A stretch of DNA of 64,000 bases from Bulleidia sp. zg-1006 (GCF_016812035.1 NZ_CP069178.1:620001-684000); one strand, 5' to 3'. Shown: positions 5,260-12,897, counted from the first letter of the stretch. Translations and numbers: made by a program. Notes: generated from the letters alone by a model not told the origin.

Positions 5260-6966
5260 ATGAAAAAAGATGGAAAAATGCAAAAACTAACTTCATTTTT
5301 ATTAGTTTTTATAATGTTATTCGGCTTATTTATATCTGTTAAACCTGTATTTGCTTCTGACGAAGTAAATGATGCGGGAACTATAACTATGAAAGTAAGC
5401 GACATCATAAAAGATAACAAAAATTTTGATAGTGAAACAGGCAATTGGGTTGCCGATTATGATGTGGCGGAAAAGATGTGGCAAGAAATGGCACCGGGTC
5501 TTGTGCCGGGAGATCATGTAATTTGCAAATTGGAAATCGTAAATGATACTAAGGTTCCTTACTATGTTCAAAAAAACATTGAAACATTTTCAATGGTATA
5601 TAAGGACGATTTTACAAATAATGACTATAACCAAATATATGGAAGGGATTTGAAATTAGGATTTGATTTTCCTGATAATACAAAGAACATTGAAAAAGTA
5701 GAAATTAAAAATCAGTCCGGGGCAAAAAAAATCAATCTCGGAGGAAAGCCTGCATATATTGGAGAAATTCTTGCTTCTGACAATGAGGTAAAACTTAATC
5801 CCGGCAGTCGATATGCTATGACTTACCATCTTTATTTTATATTTGAGTCGCCAAATATGTCTCAGAATATGAAGATATGGTTAAGGCTTGCAATGATGTT
5901 AAAAAAGGCGGAAACGACAACTATAAATGCAAAGAAGGTGTGGGTCGACAACGGCTTTGGCGGTGATAAAAAAGACCTCTACTTCCAACTCAGAAAAAAT
6001 AATAATGGAAACTATGAGAATGTTGGAGATAAACAAAAAGTAGAAGGTGTAAATGAAGTAACTTGGACGGTGCCTAAGTATGATGACCGAGGTAATGAAA
6101 TAAAGTATGTAGTAGCTGAAGTGGATAAAGATGATAATTCATGGAATGCAAACAGTAATTGGAGTTTTGATGTTAAAGGAACTGTAACTGATGGATTTAC
6201 CTTTACCAACATCTATAACAATAATCGTATAAAAGTTGAAGGTTCAAAAACTTGGAATGACAATAATAACCAAGATGGCAAAAGACCTGAAAAAATTACT
6301 ATCAACTTAATGAAGAAAGTTGGAGACGGTGAAGTTGTTAAGGCTGACAGTAAAATAATAGAAAAGGATAGCGAAGGTAATTGGAAGTGGTCCTGGGAAA
6401 ATCTGCCTGAATATGAAAACAAAAAGAAGATAACATATACAGTATCAGAGGAAGTGGTAGAAGGTTATTCAGTCAAGATTAATGGTTATGATATTACAAA
6501 CTCATATACACCCGGAAAGACAAGCATTCAGGTAACAAAAGCTTGGGAAGATAAGAATGACCAAGACGGAGTAAGACCAGACAGCATAACTGTCAAGTTA
6601 TTGGCAGACGGCAAAGAAACAGCTAGGACATTAACCTTGACAAAGGCAGATAACTGGACAGGAACTTTCACAAACCTTGATGAATACAAGGCAGGAAAGA
6701 AGATAAAATACACTGTAAAAGAAGAGCCTGTCGGCAATGGATACAAGAGTTTGATTACAAAAAGTGGTAAGAACGGATATGTTGTTACTAACATTAGAGT
6801 TCCGAATACCCCTTCGAAAAAACCTAATAAACCGAATAAACCATTACCGAAGACAGGCGATGCTTCTAATCCTACTCTATACGCAAGTCTTTTAGGTTTA
6901 TCAGGAATTGCATGGTTGTTACTTGGACTTTTAAGAAAAAAGAATAGAAAAGAAGAAAACAAATAA
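5260..6966 (+). CDS. LPXTG-anchored Cna-B repeat surface protein
   Basis: A cell-wall-anchored adhesin- or pilin-like protein of 568 residues. It has a signal peptide (hydrophobic run about 9-30, cut near VFA-SDE), an N-terminal domain of about 170 residues, then three Cna-B-like modules. The modules start near TTTINAKKVWVD, IKVEGSKTWND and TSIQVTKAWED, and each ends with a YTVxEE-type segment. After a proline/lysine spacer come the sortase motif LPKTGD, a hydrophobic helix and a basic tail. Codon use is AT-richer than in neighbours (many ATA and AGA), which with flanking IS debris suggests horizontal acquisition. The ligand is unknown. Confidence 0.85.
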   Translation: MKKDGKMQKLTSFLLVFIMLFGLFISVKPVFASDEVNDAGTITMKVSDIIKDNKNFDSETGNWVADYDVAEKMWQEMAPGLVPGDHVICKLEIVNDTKVPYYVQKNIETFSMVYKDDFTNNDYNQIYGRDLKLGFDFPDNTKNIEKVEIKNQSGAKKINLGGKPAYIGEILASDNEVKLNPGSRYAMTYHLYFIFESPNMSQNMKIWLRLAMMLKKAETTTINAKKVWVDNGFGGDKKDLYFQLRKNNNGNYENVGDKQKVEGVNEVTWTVPKYDDRGNEIKYVVAEVDKDDNSWNANSNWSFDVKGTVTDGFTFTNIYNNNRIKVEGSKTWNDNNNQDGKRPEKITINLMKKVGDGEVVKADSKIIEKDSEGNWKWSWENLPEYENKKKITYTVSEEVVEGYSVKINGYDITNSYTPGKTSIQVTKAWEDKNDQDGVRPDSITVKLLADGKETARTLTLTKADNWTGTFTNLDEYKAGKKIKYTVKEEPVGNGYKSLITKSGKNGYVVTNIRVPNTPSKKPNKPNKPLPKTGDASNPTLYASLLGLSGIAWLLLGLLRKKNRKEENK

Positions 6967-7145: not shown

Positions 7146-7432
7146 CTAGGCGGAACACATGGATGCTGTCCTGTATTGTACAGCTGGCATCCATTTTGTT
7201 TTTACCTGAATTCTTTTGTTATTATAATAATCTATATATTCATCAATAGCCTTTGAGAATTCTGAGAAGGAAGAATAGTCTTTCTCATAGCCATAATACA
7301 TCTCATTTTTCAATCTTCCAAAGAATGCTACCATTATGGCGCTTAGAAATACTCAAGTCTATGATTTTCCTTGAGAATAAATCCATCACAACACAAAGGT
7401 AATGGAAAAAGTCATTTACCTTGATATAAATA
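7146..7432 (-). pseudogene. IS3-family transposase OrfB, internally deleted 3' fragment
   Basis: Read on the minus strand, the outer part (7432 to about 7335) encodes FIYIKVNDFFHYLCVV then MDLFSRKIIDLSISKRHNG, the rve/DDE core of IS150-type OrfB. It is followed, after a frame change, by AFFGRLKNEMYYGYEKD and a YNNKRIQ C-terminus ending at 7146. LKNE carries the last catalytic Glu. The roughly 60 residues normally between these blocks are missing, as is the N-terminal half. The element is dead and opposite in orientation to the orfA fragment at 4952. Confidence 0.75.
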
Positions 7433-7522
7433 AAATTACTTATCTAAACAGAGTGTACAATAAATTCCTCTTTTTTATGGAGTTTCGATTCTTTTGGGAA
7501 TAAGAAAGAGAAAGGAGTTTTT
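7433..7522 (+). promoter_or_regulatory. Leader of the T7SS-like operon
   Basis: TACAAT at 7456-7461 is a possible -10 but has no good -35. It lies at the edge of the IS debris. AAAGGAG precedes ATG7523 at good spacing. Whether the operon has its own promoter or depends on read-through is not clear from sequence. Confidence 0.3.
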
Positions 7523-7816
7523 ATGATTAAAGTTGAACCGGAAGAATTAGAATTGCAAGCCAATCAGTTGCAACAAGCTTTAGAACAATACCAAAATCAA
7601 AGTGGTCAATTGATGAACACGGTATTAAATCTAAAGGATATTTGGCAAGGAAAAGACAATGAGGCTTTTACCAATCGTTTATTGGAATACCACAAAGATA
7701 TCCAACAGATTGGTCTTATCCTCAATGACTACATTCAATTTTTAAAACAAAGCACGCATAGCTATCGTCAAGTCCAAGAGGATTTAGTATCACAAGTCCA
7801 AGGATTAAAAGGATAG
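7523..7816 (+). CDS. WXG100-family (EsxA-like) protein
   Basis: A 97-residue, almost fully helical, leaderless small protein with a W-Q-G turn at residues 41-43 between two amphipathic helices. Length and layout are those of WXG100 proteins, which are substrates and structural partners of type VII secretion. The C-terminus lacks a clear YxxxD/E export signal. It starts the five-gene operon that ends in an EssC-like ATPase, and its partner gene follows after 9 nt. Confidence 0.85.
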   Translation: MIKVEPEELELQANQLQQALEQYQNQSGQLMNTVLNLKDIWQGKDNEAFTNRLLEYHKDIQQIGLILNDYIQFLKQSTHSYRQVQEDLVSQVQGLKG

Positions 7817-7825
7817 GAGGGTTTT

Positions 7826-8122
7826 ATGGCTATACAAATATCAATTGCGAATGTTCGTGAATCTTGTGATCATCTCAAACAACAATCTCAACAAATGATG
7901 GATACCCTAGAAGCCATCAAACAGAAAATGATTCTAGTCCAGCATAGTTTTGAATCCGAAGCTTCGGATGAATTTCAAAATCGCTTTCGACTATTTTCAA
8001 AACGTTTTTTAGAAATGCGGGATACAATTCAATCCTATATTCAATTCTTAGAAATGACGACGAGTTCTTATGAGAGTTTAGATGCTAGTCTAAAAGGAAA
8101 TGCGAATGGTATGCAAGTGTAA
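7826..8122 (+). CDS. Esx-like helical hairpin protein without the WXG tryptophan
   Basis: A 98-residue protein with the same size, helix pattern and C-terminal IQFLEMTTSSYESLD block as the upstream WXG100 protein (compare IQFLKQSTHSYRQVQ). Residues 42-44 are F-E-S where W-x-G is expected. It is probably the second half of an Esx heterodimer, or a diverged duplicate. GGAGG precedes ATG7826, and its 3' end overlaps the lipoprotein gene. Confidence 0.7.
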   Translation: MAIQISIANVRESCDHLKQQSQQMMDTLEAIKQKMILVQHSFESEASDEFQNRFRLFSKRFLEMRDTIQSYIQFLEMTTSSYESLDASLKGNANGMQV

Positions 8123-10079
8123 AAAGATTGTCTTATGTGCCTTGTTATCTCTTTCTCTATTTGCTTGTAAAAAAGAAACGAAAGATACGATTTCATTAGG
8201 AAATTGGTTAAAAGCCTTACAACAAGAAGCCCATATTGAAGCAACTAAAACAAAAAAACCATATTTTCTTCACATCCAAAAAAATCATCCGCAGTTTGAG
8301 ATAGTTCAAACTGCGGTAGATTGGAAGATTGTGGAAGAAGGAATCCATTTTGATTTAGAAAAATCCTTAACGAAAGAATGGCTAGCGTATACCCTTGTAA
8401 ACTTGTGGGAACCTAAGAAAGAGCTATCCAGTCCAAGCATTAAAGATAAGGATAAATCTCAGTTTCCAAAGCACATTGAAAAAGCAGTTTCTTTAGGGAT
8501 TGTGGACGTAGATAAGCATCAACTATTTCATCCTCAAGAAGTCTTAGAAAAAAAGAAAGCGATTGAAATTTTGAAGAAAGTCGTTCGTTATTTGGATGAT
8601 AAAGAAGTGAAGTCAAATCAAGGAAAAGTGGAGTGGAAAGAAGGTATGGATGTACAAGAAATCAATTCCTCCCAATTCAATGAAAAAGAAAAGTCATTCC
8701 ACCTAGGACAAAAATCTTCTATCAAAAAAGGGACGATTTTAAAACACAAAGAAAACTATTATCGTATTAAAAGAATAGCGGATAAAAAAGCCTTTTTAGA
8801 AAGTATCAATCCTTTAGAATTCACGGAAAAGATAGACCTTTCAGGCGAAATGAAGGTGGATTGGTCAAAAGCAAGTGTTCAACCGATTTCAGAGGTACTT
8901 CAGCCAATGGCACTGAAGTCCTCTTCTTATGTTAAGCCCATTCAAATCTTTGGTTATCAAGGGGAACTAAGGTTAGATTCATCAGGTGTTTATGTACGAG
9001 CTGAAAAACAACTTCCTAAAAAAGCAAAGGCTTTTGTACAAATGGATGTTAGTGGTTTATCGTTAAAATACGATTGGCATTCTCGAGGCTTAAGGATACC
9101 GGATGCTTATGTTCGTTTTCGCTTTCAATCCAATCAAAAAGCCGGTATTGAAAAGGAAAATAAAAAAAGCTATCAGCTCAATCCCAATCTAAATTTAAGG
9201 GATATTCAATCCTATCTCATTCCAAAAGAGCACTTTGTGAAAGCCAGAATTCCTTTATGTTCTATTCAAGTCCCCATTCCTCAATTTCCTAGTTTGAATG
9301 TGCATTTATCTCTCGTGGCAGAATTGGATATGCAGGGTTATCTTCACTTCTCTTTACAACAAATGAACCTCTTGGGGTTTCAAATTCGTAATTCTCATAT
9401 CCGTTGGATTTCAAATTCCAGTCAACAAAATTATCTGCAATCCAATGCGTCTGCTTCTGTGCTTGCGAATGTGAGCTTGGCTTTGCGTTTAGCCCATTAT
9501 GACTTAGCAAATGTAGGTTTAAAAGCAGGTATTCAAGGACGTTTGAAGGATAAAATTGTTTTTTACGATAGCTATCGCAAGGGGCAAGAGCTAGAAGGAC
9601 CTTTTGACGAGCAAATTCAACAAAAAGAAGGCATTCGTTATTGTAAAGATTATTCAGCGAATTGGCTGCTGGAGGTTTTCTTTAATCAAGAAAATAGTTT
9701 TTTAAATCGATTGGGTATGAAAGCGAATTTCCCTTTACTAAATGAGAAACAAGCCACCATTTTTAAAGCAAAGGGGAATGGTCTGGAGGCTTGTCGCTTA
9801 AATCCACCAAGAGATAGAGAAGCGATTCATTATCGAGATGGATTCGCCTTGGAAAGTTTAAGCTATACCGTTAAAAAAGGACAAGTAGTATCCGTTGAAC
9901 TTCTTGATTTACCGAGTGGCTATTCTTTAAAAGACGTTGAGGTAAAAGTGGTTCATCCTGAAATTATTGAAAATAATTTTTTGCTTTTTAAAGGCTTACA
10001 AGAAGGGGCCAGCTCTATTCGTATACAAACCAAAGACCAAGAGCATACCGTCTATATTTCGATTATGGTTGTTTCATGA
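8106..10079 (+). CDS. Lipoprotein with SLH-like segment in the T7SS-like locus
   Basis: An exported protein of about 657 residues whose function I do not recognise. The start region (MVCKCKKIVLC…) has a hydrophobic core and ends in a plausible lipobox LFAC, giving lipidated Cys21. Residues roughly 100-170 resemble one S-layer homology module (KAVSLGIVDVDK, LFHPQEVLEKKKAIEIL). A beta-rich middle follows and a C-terminal Ig-like end. No catalytic motif is visible. The gene overlaps both neighbours, so it is translationally coupled with the Esx-like gene and the ATPase. I infer a surface or envelope partner of the secretion system, possibly replacing EssB or EsaA. ATG8100 is an alternative start but is very close to the ribosome-binding site. 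Confidence 0.6.
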   Translation: MVCKCKKIVLCALLSLSLFACKKETKDTISLGNWLKALQQEAHIEATKTKKPYFLHIQKNHPQFEIVQTAVDWKIVEEGIHFDLEKSLTKEWLAYTLVNLWEPKKELSSPSIKDKDKSQFPKHIEKAVSLGIVDVDKHQLFHPQEVLEKKKAIEILKKVVRYLDDKEVKSNQGKVEWKEGMDVQEINSSQFNEKEKSFHLGQKSSIKKGTILKHKENYYRIKRIADKKAFLESINPLEFTEKIDLSGEMKVDWSKASVQPISEVLQPMALKSSSYVKPIQIFGYQGELRLDSSGVYVRAEKQLPKKAKAFVQMDVSGLSLKYDWHSRGLRIPDAYVRFRFQSNQKAGIEKENKKSYQLNPNLNLRDIQSYLIPKEHFVKARIPLCSIQVPIPQFPSLNVHLSLVAELDMQGYLHFSLQQMNLLGFQIRNSHIRWISNSSQQNYLQSNASASVLANVSLALRLAHYDLANVGLKAGIQGRLKDKIVFYDSYRKGQELEGPFDEQIQQKEGIRYCKDYSANWLLEVFFNQENSFLNRLGMKANFPLLNEKQATIFKAKGNGLEACRLNPPRDREAIHYRDGFALESLSYTVKKGQVVSVELLDLPSGYSLKDVEVKVVHPEIIENNFLLFKGLQEGASSIRIQTKDQEHTVYISIMVVS

Positions 10080-12697
10080 GAATACTACTTTGTTATCAAA
10101 AAAGAGTTAGAAGGATAGTGTTAAATGAATGTTTCGTGGATAAACTAAAGATTGTGTATCAGGATGGTTTTTATTTAGATAAACAAGCTTTACCGTTAAA
10201 ACAATGGATTCATTTCAGATACCGTCATAAGCGATATAGTCTTTGGATTGAACAAGAATCAACGTATAGCTATATTCTGCCCTGTGACTTAAAACTAGAA
10301 AAGGATCTTCCCAAAGGTATTCCAAGCCTAGAATTAAAAGCTGATGGAAGTATTGAGTCATTGGATAAGATATGGAAAAAAGGGGATTGCTTGGATTATT
10401 ACCACTATCATCTTGAATGGCATGCGTTTGGTTGGTTGGTGAATACCAGTCTTTCGGAAAAGAAGGTTCAACTGGAAACAAGAATAAGAAGAGAAGTTTA
10501 TTTTCCTAAGTTAGAGAAGTTGGAACAACCAAAGCATATTCCTATGCCAGCCATTGTTGCTTACCCAAAGAGGTCTTTATTACTTCAAATGGGACCTAGT
10601 TTAACGATGACTTTTGCGACTTTAATGAATGCGTCCGTACAATCATTTCGTTTGTATGAACAGGGAAAATCACAAGAAGAAATTTTATTTGTGTTTTTAA
10701 TGCCTGTCATGATGTTTGTGAGTATTATTTTATGGCAACCATTGAATCGCTACGCTGAAAATAAGCAAGAAAAGAAGAATAAAGAAACGCAAATGTTAGA
10801 CTATCAAAAAAGTGTTCAGGAAAGTTGGCTATCTTTTTTTAAACAATTTCAGACTTATAAAGAAAGAATTAGCCAATCTTTCTTTACTTCTTCTATTTGT
10901 TTAAGACATCCACCATCTCTTTGGATAGGATTAGGCAGCAATCATGAAAACATGGATTGTCCTTTTCAAAAGGAAATTGAAACTTTAAAAATAGAAAACT
11001 TCACAAATCAGAAAGTGTTATTTTCGGCTAGTGAAGAAATGTTTATCCAATGGATAAAAAAATGGGATGCTTTATATCTAGCTAAGGATATACCGGCTTA
11101 TTTAATTGCTTCAAAGGATTGGTTTGAGAAACATTTAGAATTACAGCAACTTCCACTTTTTTACCACCATGGGAAACGACATTTTTATACAAATGATGAT
11201 TTTGAAATAGAGTCAGGATCCATTCTTTTTTCAATGATTCCTTTAACCACTTTCAAACAAGCTACTTACTTTGTTTTGAGCACACAATCGCTCCATTATC
11301 CTTATGAAAAAAGATTGCTGTATAACCAACAAGAAATACAGATTGAAGATGAAATTAAGAAAAGAAGCTATTATCTCATAGAAGAAAATAAACAGGAATA
11401 TAGAGCCAATGATTACCAAGTTCATGATTTAAAACAAAGTCTATCCAAACAAGGCTTGTCTTGTGACATGGGTGAGAATGTTTGCCTAGACTTAAGTGAA
11501 ACAGGGATGGGACCTCATGCCATCATTACAGGTACAACGGGCAGCGGGAAAAGTGAGTTTGTCTTGTATTGGTTATTAAAGATGGCTTGTCAAAACACGC
11601 CAGAACAGCTTCAAATCCTCTTGTTTGATTTTAAAGGAGAAAGTTTAAAGCAATCGCTTATGAACAAGGGCAAGCCTATTCCCTATATTAATGCCAGCAT
11701 TAGTGACTTAGATATAGATGAATTCGATAGAGCTTTATATGGTTTAGAACAAGAATGTCGGTATCGAGAGACTCTTTTTCAAAAAGCGAGCGTTTCCTTA
11801 CAAAAGCCAATCACTAGTTTAAGTCAATACCAAACGTTACAAAAAGAAGATTGGGAATGTTTGCCGGAAATCATCTTAGTTTTTGATGAATTTGCTCAAT
11901 TTAAACAACGCTTTCCGGATAAATTAAATCCTTTTATTACATTAGCAAGAATTGGTAGAAGCCTAGGTATCCATTTTATTTTAATTACCCAAAAGGCCAG
12001 CGGTATTATTTCTGAACAAATATGGGCAAATGTGCGCTTGAGAATATGTATGAAGGTAACCGATAAACAAGATTGTTTAGATACTTTGCATGAAGATCGA
12101 AGAAAGGATCTAAAACTAGCGGGAGATTTTATTGCTCACTATGATGAAGAATATCAGCAAGGTCATTGTCCTTATTTAGAAGATTTTATTACTCCAGAAG
12201 AAAAGAAAGTGGAATTGGACCTTCAGCTACAAGCCATTCCAACAAAGAGTAAAAATCAATTGCGCTTGCGCGAATATTTATTAGAAGAAATTGAAAAGAA
12301 AAAAGAAGAAAATCATCTTCGCTCTATTTGGTTAAAACCACCAAGTTCTAATTTACTAACTTCTTCCATGTTAGGAATCATAGATGATTATGAGCAGGCT
12401 CGTTATACACCTATTTTATTAGAAGAAATAAAGAAACCAATTCTATTTTTATATGCGAATCAAGAGGATATATTCACCTTAGAAAAGCGAATTGGAAAAG
12501 GAAAATTTCAAGCTCGTTCTATTCATGAAAAAATGAGTCAAACGGAATTAGACAATCATTTTATTTTGTATAAAGGACCATTAACTCTTGATCGAATAAG
12601 TCAATACTTCCAACAAATGAAACGCATTCATTCTTTAAGAAAAGCAGAGGCGCTATGTCTATATCAAGAAAAAATTCAGAAAATCCTATTGTTTTAA
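10076..12697 (+). CDS. essC-like: EssC-like FtsK/SpoIIIE-type ATPase, short form
   Basis: Motor ATPase of a type VII-like secretion system. The N-terminal 165 residues are beta-rich, in the position of the EssC FHA domains. Two membrane helices follow (about 168-186 and 203-221), then a linker and one FtsK/SpoIIIE ATPase domain with Walker A GTTGSGKS at 486-493 and Walker B IILVFDEF at about 599-606. Canonical EssC has about 1480 residues and up to three ATPase modules. This one has 873, with only one intact Walker A and about 170 residues after it, so the second and third modules are lost or vestigial. ATG10076 overlaps the lipoprotein stop by 4 nt (ATGA). Confidence 0.8.
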   Translation: MRILLCYQKRVRRIVLNECFVDKLKIVYQDGFYLDKQALPLKQWIHFRYRHKRYSLWIEQESTYSYILPCDLKLEKDLPKGIPSLELKADGSIESLDKIWKKGDCLDYYHYHLEWHAFGWLVNTSLSEKKVQLETRIRREVYFPKLEKLEQPKHIPMPAIVAYPKRSLLLQMGPSLTMTFATLMNASVQSFRLYEQGKSQEEILFVFLMPVMMFVSIILWQPLNRYAENKQEKKNKETQMLDYQKSVQESWLSFFKQFQTYKERISQSFFTSSICLRHPPSLWIGLGSNHENMDCPFQKEIETLKIENFTNQKVLFSASEEMFIQWIKKWDALYLAKDIPAYLIASKDWFEKHLELQQLPLFYHHGKRHFYTNDDFEIESGSILFSMIPLTTFKQATYFVLSTQSLHYPYEKRLLYNQQEIQIEDEIKKRSYYLIEENKQEYRANDYQVHDLKQSLSKQGLSCDMGENVCLDLSETGMGPHAIITGTTGSGKSEFVLYWLLKMACQNTPEQLQILLFDFKGESLKQSLMNKGKPIPYINASISDLDIDEFDRALYGLEQECRYRETLFQKASVSLQKPITSLSQYQTLQKEDWECLPEIILVFDEFAQFKQRFPDKLNPFITLARIGRSLGIHFILITQKASGIISEQIWANVRLRICMKVTDKQDCLDTLHEDRRKDLKLAGDFIAHYDEEYQQGHCPYLEDFITPEEKKVELDLQLQAIPTKSKNQLRLREYLLEEIEKKKEENHLRSIWLKPPSSNLLTSSMLGIIDDYEQARYTPILLEEIKKPILFLYANQEDIFTLEKRIGKGKFQARSIHEKMSQTELDNHFILYKGPLTLDRISQYFQQMKRIHSLRKAEALCLYQEKIQKILLF

Positions 12698-12897
12698 GAA
12701 GAATTATTTTAAAAATCAAACTAGAAGACCATTGGTTTGAAGTTCAAAGTCATTGTTCTTTAAAGGAAGTGTTCCCTAGCTATCATTTATTTTATGATTT
12801 GTTAGAAGGGGAATGGATTGATGAAGATGAAAAGATAGAAACACTTTGTAAGGGAAATCGGCTTCCTTATTTAGAAGTCTTTCAGTCAATTGAATAA
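12655..12897 (+). CDS. Small protein, possible YukD/EsaB-like ubiquitin-fold protein
   Basis: An 80-residue protein whose gene overlaps the 3' end of the ATPase gene by 43 nt, with a GAGG ribosome-binding site. Size, the beta-strand start (RRIILKIKLEDHWFEV) and its place beside an EssC gene are what one expects of YukD/EsaB. The sequence itself is not convincingly conserved, so the assignment rests mainly on context. The truB promoter sits at its 3' end. Confidence 0.4.
   Translation: MSISRKNSENPIVLRRIILKIKLEDHWFEVQSHCSLKEVFPSYHLFYDLLEGEWIDEDEKIETLCKGNRLPYLEVFQSIE

What the first reader, a model, noticed from the sequence alone, without database searches (positions are those of the whole stretch)
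7523..12897. Compact type VII secretion-like locus with a short EssC and an unrecognised lipoprotein
Five tightly coupled genes encode two Esx-type helical hairpins, a lipoprotein with an SLH-like segment, an EssC-like ATPase with only one intact Walker A (873 residues versus about 1480 in canonical EssC), and a small YukD-sized protein. No EssA, EssB, EsaA or LXG effector lies in the window. This could be a minimal T7SS variant in which the lipoprotein replaces the missing membrane partners.
Basis: partly seen in the sequence, partly recalled or inferred. Interest (0 to 1): 0.8.

Follow-up and report, generated by a model that had tools for sequence, protein, structure and literature searches.

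The report
Pared-down type VII secretion gene cluster
[quoted passage not shown] in this species even the motor has lost about a third of its length.

Summary
The five genes are real, intact and at the stated coordinates: two WXG100 proteins, a lipoprotein, an EssC-like ATPase with one Walker A, and a YukD-like protein. In this near-complete 1.55 Mb genome, EssA, EssB, EsaA and LXG were not detected, and the only WXG100 genes are this pair. The cluster is not unique. The lipoprotein occurs in 113 of 295 Erysipelotrichales genomes, almost all Erysipelotrichaceae. In all 80 genomes where both genes lie on one contig, it sits just upstream of essC. Relatives also lack EssB and EsaA although their EssC is 1,080-1,318 aa, so the lipoprotein does not compensate for a short EssC. 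One Walker A is normal in this group. The EssC shortening (loss of most of D2-D3) is shared by only two of 70 congeneric genomes and is under purifying selection, so it is not a recent frameshift. The lipoprotein combines a lipobox, an SLH-trimer-like fold, a beta-rich region and a Big_2 domain; homologues lie in Clostridia T7SSe-type loci. The arrangement matches none of published types T7SSa-j. Verdict: a new T7SS variant of this family, with its most reduced EssC here. That the lipoprotein replaces missing membrane partners is plausible but untested.

The parts
7510..7517 (+). Shine-Dalgarno-like gaaaggag before the first gene
   Evidence: Read directly in the sequence
7523..7816 (+). WXG-A, Esx-type WXG100 protein (97 aa) with the W-x-G turn (WQG)
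   Evidence: Pfam WXG100 7.6e-12, TIGR03930 46.6 bits over its cut-off; 89% identical in G031
7826..8122 (+). WXG-B, partner WXG100 protein (98 aa); the turn W is replaced by F here and in G031
   Evidence: Pfam WXG100 3.6e-9 over its cut-off; alignment A5
8100..10079 (+). Lipoprotein (659 aa): lipobox Cys23, SLH-trimer-like N domain, beta-rich middle, C-terminal Big_2-like Ig domain
   Evidence: Cys23 invariant in both alignments; predicted model and Foldseek hits to Sap SLH and Big_2; Pfam hits in an ortholog; profile hits
8181..8600 (+). SLH-like region of the lipoprotein (residues about 28-167)
   Evidence: Secondary structure of the model; Foldseek 3pyw E 1.2e-4, 6bt4 E 5.1e-4
9867..10076 (+). 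Big_2-like Ig domain of the lipoprotein (residues about 590-659)
   Evidence: Profile positions 584-669 hit Big_2-type proteins in many genomes; PDB hits; Foldseek Big_2-CBM56
10076..12697 (+). Short EssC-like ATPase (873 aa): shortened N terminus with remnant of FHA2, two membrane helices, central domain, intact D1, most of D2-D3 missing, C-terminal tail kept
   Evidence: TIGR03928 1.7e-56 over 466-681; alignment with relatives; profile of the group matches YukB 9qks; hhalign
10577..10747 (+). Membrane hairpin of EssC (residues about 168-224)
   Evidence: Hydropathy peak 199-224 with a weaker first helix, aligned to helices of relatives
11468..12118 (+). D1 FtsK/SpoIIIE-type ATPase domain of EssC (Walker A at 11531-11554, Walker B at 11873-11890)
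12655..12897 (+). Small YukD-position protein (80 aa as listed; the true start may lie further downstream), probable shortened ubiquitin-like fold
   Evidence: Same place as YukD-like genes of relatives; AlphaFold2 beta-grasp topology, pLDDT 80; structural matches mainly ubiquitin-like, Z 5-6; no Pfam hit

Best explanation
A reduced type VII secretion system, one case of a lipoprotein-containing T7SS type found throughout Erysipelotrichaceae. The EssC hexamer, using its single catalytic D1 ATPase and its membrane helices, exports the WXG-A/WXG-B pair across the membrane. The YukD-like protein acts at the cytoplasmic side of EssC. The lipoprotein is the one extracytoplasmic component: anchored in the outer leaflet by its lipid, it holds the wall through its SLH domain and extends its beta-rich and Ig-like parts outward, much as EsaA (T7SSb) or TsxI (T7SSd, e, j) is thought to do. 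In the ancestor of this species and its sister, EssC then lost most of D2-D3, whose job in S. aureus includes holding EssC together with EsaA, EssA and EssB, proteins not found here. Shown: gene content, conservation, co-occurrence, domain losses and purifying selection. Inferred: export, complex formation and the wall-linking role of the lipoprotein.
For: The five-gene order recurs between rbfA and truB/ribF in the same genus and in other genera. The lipoprotein is in 113 genomes; in 80 of 80 with both genes on one contig EssC lies 0-4 kb downstream. No full-length lipoprotein outside the family in a 392-genome phylum sample. EssB, EsaA and LXG were not found above cut-off in 21 T7SS-bearing genomes, with B. 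subtilis as positive control. The group's EssC profile matches YukB over 115-966, E 6e-131. pN/pS window against G031: WXG 0.09, lipoprotein 0.25, EssC 0.28, like neighbouring genes at 0.05-0.26. SLH and Big_2 folds. Lipoprotein homologues lie in a T7SSe-type Clostridia locus beside EssC, YukD, WXG pair, DUF6382-FHA, PPM and kinase, and in a Hungatella MAG locus. D2 is needed for assembly with EsaA, EssA and EssB in S. aureus (PMC9436818).
Against: No export has been measured. In S. aureus no EssC lacking D2-D3 or D3 secretes (PMC9436818). No effector beyond the WXG pair was recognised. The lipoprotein model has a mean pLDDT of only 62 and its middle is unreliable. CsaB, which makes the usual SLH ligand, was not found in this genome. 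The small protein has no significant sequence match to YukD.
Confidence: 0.6

Rival explanations
1. The EssC/WXG/lipoprotein set works as a T7SS, but undetected, highly diverged EssB- or EsaA-like proteins elsewhere in the genome complete it; the lipoprotein is an accessory such as a wall anchor or substrate receptor.
For: These proteins diverge fast (EssC long branches; lipoproteins only 18-26% identical to the window's outside G031), so HMM absence is not proof. In Clostridia the lipoprotein coexists with kinase, PPM and FHA components.
Against: EssB, EsaA and EssA not detected in this genome; EssB and EsaA not above cut-off in any of 20 relatives, while the same models find B. subtilis. No other gene is consistently next to the five across genera.
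Confidence: 0.15
2. The locus no longer exports; in this lineage EssC and the WXG pair have been turned to another envelope role, for example a membrane or wall-sensing complex.
For: Loss of D2-D3 abolishes secretion in S. aureus; no effectors seen; W to F in WXG-B and a shortened YukD-like protein occur in the same two species.
Against: D1 motifs, membrane helices, both WXG proteins and the lipoprotein are all kept under constraint comparable with neighbouring housekeeping genes.
Confidence: 0.12
3. A decaying remnant: the whole cluster is on its way out after an EssC deletion in a reduced genome.
For: Two small genomes (1.4-1.55 Mb), shortened EssC and YukD-like gene, higher pN/pS of the small gene at 0.61.
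Against: No stop or frameshift in any gene in either species at near-saturated synonymous distance; WXG pN/pS 0.09, EssC 0.28 and lipoprotein 0.25.
Confidence: 0.08
4. A canonical T7SSb (Ess/Yuk) locus that has simply lost genes.
For: The group's EssC profile matches YukB; WXG100 and YukD-like genes are present.
Against: EssC of this type does not group with the Bacillus/Streptococcus T7SSb clade; the lipoprotein is absent from that clade's loci in the set; EssB and EsaA are absent across the family members tested and EssA from this genome.
Confidence: 0.05

Closest known systems
T7SSe (Garrett, Higginson and Palmer 2024, PMC11217815)
   Same: Two WXG100 proteins, YukD-like protein and EssC; a Clostridia locus with T7SSe-type gene content (L135) carries the same lipoprotein family
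   Different: No kinase, PPM phosphatase, DUF6382-FHA protein, TseH, TseI or TseK at this locus; the published description mentions no lipoprotein
T7SSg (same paper)
   Same: Equally small set: two WXG100, ubiquitin-like protein, EssC and one beta-rich extra protein
   Different: The extra protein there is a DUF5050 beta-propeller; EssC there lacks FHA domains; T7SSg lies next to Tad pilus genes in Acetivibrio and Paenibacillus
T7SSb (Ess of S. aureus, Yuk of B. subtilis)
   Same: EssC/YukB-type ATPase, WXG100 protein, YukD/EsaB position
   Different: No EssA, EssB, EsaA or LXG detected; EssC of 873 aa against about 1,480; two WXG proteins; lipoprotein present
SLH-domain proteins such as Sap of B. 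anthracis (PDB 3pyw, 6bt4)
   Same: N-terminal region of the lipoprotein has the SLH-trimer fold by prediction
   Different: Lipid-anchored, not an S-layer protein; the pyruvyltransferase CsaB was not found in this genome

Membership tests
Type VII secretion system (general) | FtsK/SpoIIIE-type membrane ATPase related to EssC/EccC | tested here: met
   TIGR03928 E 1.7e-56 over D1; group profile matches YukB E 6e-131
Type VII secretion system (general) | WXG100 protein encoded with the ATPase | tested here: met
   Both proteins over the Pfam cut-off
Type VII secretion system (general) | Secretion of the WXG100 proteins depends on the ATPase | not testable with these tools
   Needs bench work
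Type VII secretion system (general) | YukD/EsaB ubiquitin-like protein | tested here: inconclusive
   No Pfam YukD hit; profile comparison of the window pair alone not significant; beta-grasp model and ubiquitin-like matches; relatives' gene profile matches a YukD-like set
EssC equivalog (TIGR03928) | Whole-protein score over the curated cut-off of 778.4 bits | tested here: not met
   191.6 bits, D1 only
T7SSb | EssB/YukC | tested here: not met
   PF10140: none in G000, none over cut-off in 21 genomes; B. subtilis control positive
T7SSb | EsaA/YueB | tested here: not met
   TIGR03929: none in G000, none over cut-off in 21 genomes; B. subtilis control positive
T7SSb | EssA | tested here: not met
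   PF10661: none in G000; B. subtilis control positive
T7SSe / T7SSj | Membrane Ser/Thr kinase, PPM phosphatase and FHA protein at the locus | tested here: not met
   Neighbouring ORFs are rbfA, an LPXTG protein, truB and ribF; full-size relatives of this type also lack them. Not searched genome-wide
T7SSg | DUF5050 beta-propeller TsgL and adjacent Tad pilus genes | tested here: not met
   The lipoprotein has no DUF5050 match in Pfam and the ORFs read between 2672 and 17323 include no Tad-like gene by inspection
SLH domain (PF00395) | Score over Pfam cut-off or SLH fold | tested here: inconclusive
   Window 12 bits against 20.8; G103 ortholog 23.5 bits; Foldseek to Sap SLH E 1.2e-4, probability 1.00
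WXG100 (PF06013) | W-x-G turn between two helices | tested here: inconclusive
   WXG-A has WQG; WXG-B has F-E-S in this species and G031 and W-x-S in relatives, though it scores over the cut-off

The most novel reading that the evidence does not exclude
A working five-gene T7SS in which a single-ATPase-domain EssC exports the WXG pair with only a lipoprotein as outside partner, showing that D2-D3, EssA, EssB, EsaA, kinases and TsxI are all dispensable once the lipoprotein-based layout exists. The lipoprotein type would be an unnamed T7SS subtype present in a large part of Erysipelotrichaceae.
Probability: 0.45. Interest if true: 0.75.

Novelty: new variant of a known kind. Interest (0 to 1): 0.57.

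Why it matters
Published T7SS types a-j include none with a lipoprotein, and the main text that defines them does not mention Erysipelotrichaceae. If it exports, this would be among the smallest T7SSs known and would separate what the EssC motor needs (D1, membrane helices, WXG pair) from what it needs only to hold EsaA, EssA and EssB (D2). It would make the open question of what forms the extracytoplasmic part of a T7SS testable with one protein. The type is widespread in one family of gut and oral bacteria.

Tried and rejected
Recent frameshift in essC: rejected, G031 shares the same form (874 aa) without stops. A second T7SS elsewhere in the genome: rejected, only two WXG100 hits, and the other EssC-like match at 404909-405532 is weak (27% identity, E 5.9e-10, in a 793-aa frame) and fits FtsK/SpoIIIE. 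The lipoprotein as an orphan of this genome: rejected. Search around the Clostridia locus: not possible with its handle. Promoter and terminator scan: no more sites than in shuffles. Foldseek on the lipoprotein middle: no reliable match. Single-clade test for lipoprotein-type EssC: not rejected, p 0.69, but long branches make the tree unsure. L035 was labelled decayed in the tree because my ORF filter missed its lipoprotein; one search shows it intact.

Full report
WHAT IS THERE. The five ORFs exist as described and are intact. WXG-A and WXG-B score over the Pfam WXG100 cut-off. The ATPase is 873 aa; its similarity to the EssC model is confined to D1 (residues 466-681), with one Walker A, one Walker B and a membrane hairpin. 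The lipoprotein has no full-length family; the small protein has no family match. The window is part of a 1,545,033-base single-contig genome of 99.77% completeness. EssA, EssB, EsaA and LXG models find nothing in it, and WXG100 finds only these two genes.

THE LOCUS IS SHARED. In a same-genus genome (G031) all five genes recur at the same sizes, directly after rbfA and before truB: 89% identity for both WXG proteins, 72% lipoprotein, 68% EssC, 59% small protein. Other members of the genus and many other Erysipelotrichaceae genera have the same order WXG-A, WXG-B, lipoprotein, EssC, YukD-like, often at the same chromosomal site. A profile of the lipoprotein finds it at 200 bits or more in 113 of 295 genomes of the order. 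Of 86 genomes for which EssC coordinates were also at hand, 80 have both on one contig, and in all 80 the EssC D1 region lies 0-4 kb downstream; the other six are split between contigs. In a 392-genome sample of the phylum no full-length lipoprotein appeared outside the family, only the C-terminal Big_2 part. The phylum here follows the genome taxonomy in use and, as far as I know, does not include Clostridia. One partial match in another family of the order (G179, positions 270-652, E 3e-34) was not followed up.

WHAT IS SPECIAL TO THIS SPECIES. EssC in relatives is 1,080-1,318 aa, already with a single canonical Walker A in D1, because the D2 and D3 motifs are degenerate; aligned to Bacillus-type EssC they cover residues 104-1303. 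The window and G031 proteins align to these up to about residue 793 and then lack most of D2-D3, keeping a tail like the relatives' C terminus. Among 70 genomes of the genus only these two align over the whole length of the short form. pN/pS between them, an upper bound because synonymous sites are near saturation, is 0.09 for the WXG genes, 0.25 for the lipoprotein and 0.28 for EssC, against 0.05-0.26 for neighbouring genes; the small gene is at 0.61, part of which overlaps EssC. So this is an old, maintained deletion, not a sequencing or recent frameshift artefact. WXG-B has also lost its turn tryptophan in these two species, and the small gene is shorter than its counterparts.

THE LIPOPROTEIN. 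Cys23 is invariant in 12 and in 8 aligned homologues. The predicted model (mean pLDDT 62) has a better-supported N-terminal domain that matches the SLH trimer of Sap (3pyw E 1.2e-4, probability 1.00; 6bt4), and a C-terminal Ig-like domain matching Big_2. Pfam finds SLH over the cut-off and Big_2 just below it in the G103 ortholog. The long beta-rich middle is not reliably modelled. CsaB, which makes the usual SLH ligand, was not found in this genome, so the ligand is unknown. Homologues occur in a Clostridia MAG locus (L135) with EssC of 1,525 aa, YukD-like protein, WXG pair, DUF6382-FHA, PPM and kinase, which is T7SSe-type content, and in a Hungatella MAG (L101) with VWA-FHA and kinase genes. 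Thus the lipoprotein belongs with T7SS beyond this family, and the Erysipelotrichaceae form may be a reduced relative of such systems (inference; the EssC trees have long branches).

THE SMALL PROTEIN. The window protein alone gives no significant match to YukD. Its relatives' genes match a YukD-like set by profile (E 3e-10), members of which hit Pfam YukD. The AlphaFold2 model has beta-beta-alpha-beta-beta-helix-beta order with pLDDT 80, and structural matches are mainly ubiquitin-like at Z 5-6, a modest level.

HOW IT PROBABLY WORKS. EssC with D1 as motor exports the WXG pair; the YukD-like protein sits on the cytoplasmic side; the lipoprotein, fixed to membrane and probably wall, forms the outside part. 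In S. [quoted passage not shown] Since those three proteins were not detected here, the assembly role of D2 may have become dispensable. This is a hypothesis; no export has been shown. Most lipoprotein-type genomes tested carry only the WXG pair as recognisable WXG100 proteins and no LXG proteins, so the substrate may be just the pair, or effectors of unknown type.

COMPARISON. Garrett et al. 2024 (PMC11217815) describe T7SSa-j; none contains a lipoprotein, and Erysipelotrichaceae are not mentioned in the main text. The supplement could not be read. Literature searches for this type in Erysipelotrichaceae, Solobacterium or Bulleidia found no description, within an open-access library only. By EssC and lipoprotein relationships the organism is an Erysipelotrichaceae member; a Solobacterium/Bulleidia identity is a guess from related MAG names and genome size.

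VERDICT. Observation confirmed; interpretation partly supported. A new variant of a known kind: an unnamed lipoprotein-containing T7SS type, with its shortest EssC here.

Noticed in passing
window 5260-6966 and 7146-7334: An LPXTG/Cna_B surface protein gene and a fragment of an IS transposase (integrase core rve_2, E 3.8e-19) lie between rbfA and the first WXG gene here but not in G031, where WXG-A follows rbfA after about 60 nt.
   Followed up: partly
L042:6609-9356, L044:12252-14996, L051:5462-8068: In three relatives the gene after the YukD-like gene encodes an 869-916 aa protein with a signal-peptide-like start and a glucosaminidase domain, reminiscent of the S. aureus T7SS wall hydrolase EssH.
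   Followed up: partly
L040, L045, L047, L048, L049, L050: A second T7SS lineage in the same family without the lipoprotein, with an FHA-domain protein, a Ser/Thr kinase, a protein with a C-terminal membrane segment, EssC, YukD-like and two WXG genes.
   Followed up: partly
G126 contigs C9 and C36: One congeneric genome carries two T7SS loci: the lipoprotein type on C9 and another on C36 with a 1,531-aa EssC frame and two further WXG100 genes.
   Followed up: no
L035, L036, L038, L052, L071, L072, L114: An amino-acid ABC transporter gene group, often with a radical-SAM-like gene, repeatedly lies downstream of the T7SS cluster.
   Followed up: no
G179:C103:173630-174754 and G006:C1:1054942-1056288: Partial lipoprotein-profile matches in a genome of another family of the order (E 3e-34) and in a 1,200-aa frame of a family member (E 6e-38).
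   Followed up: no
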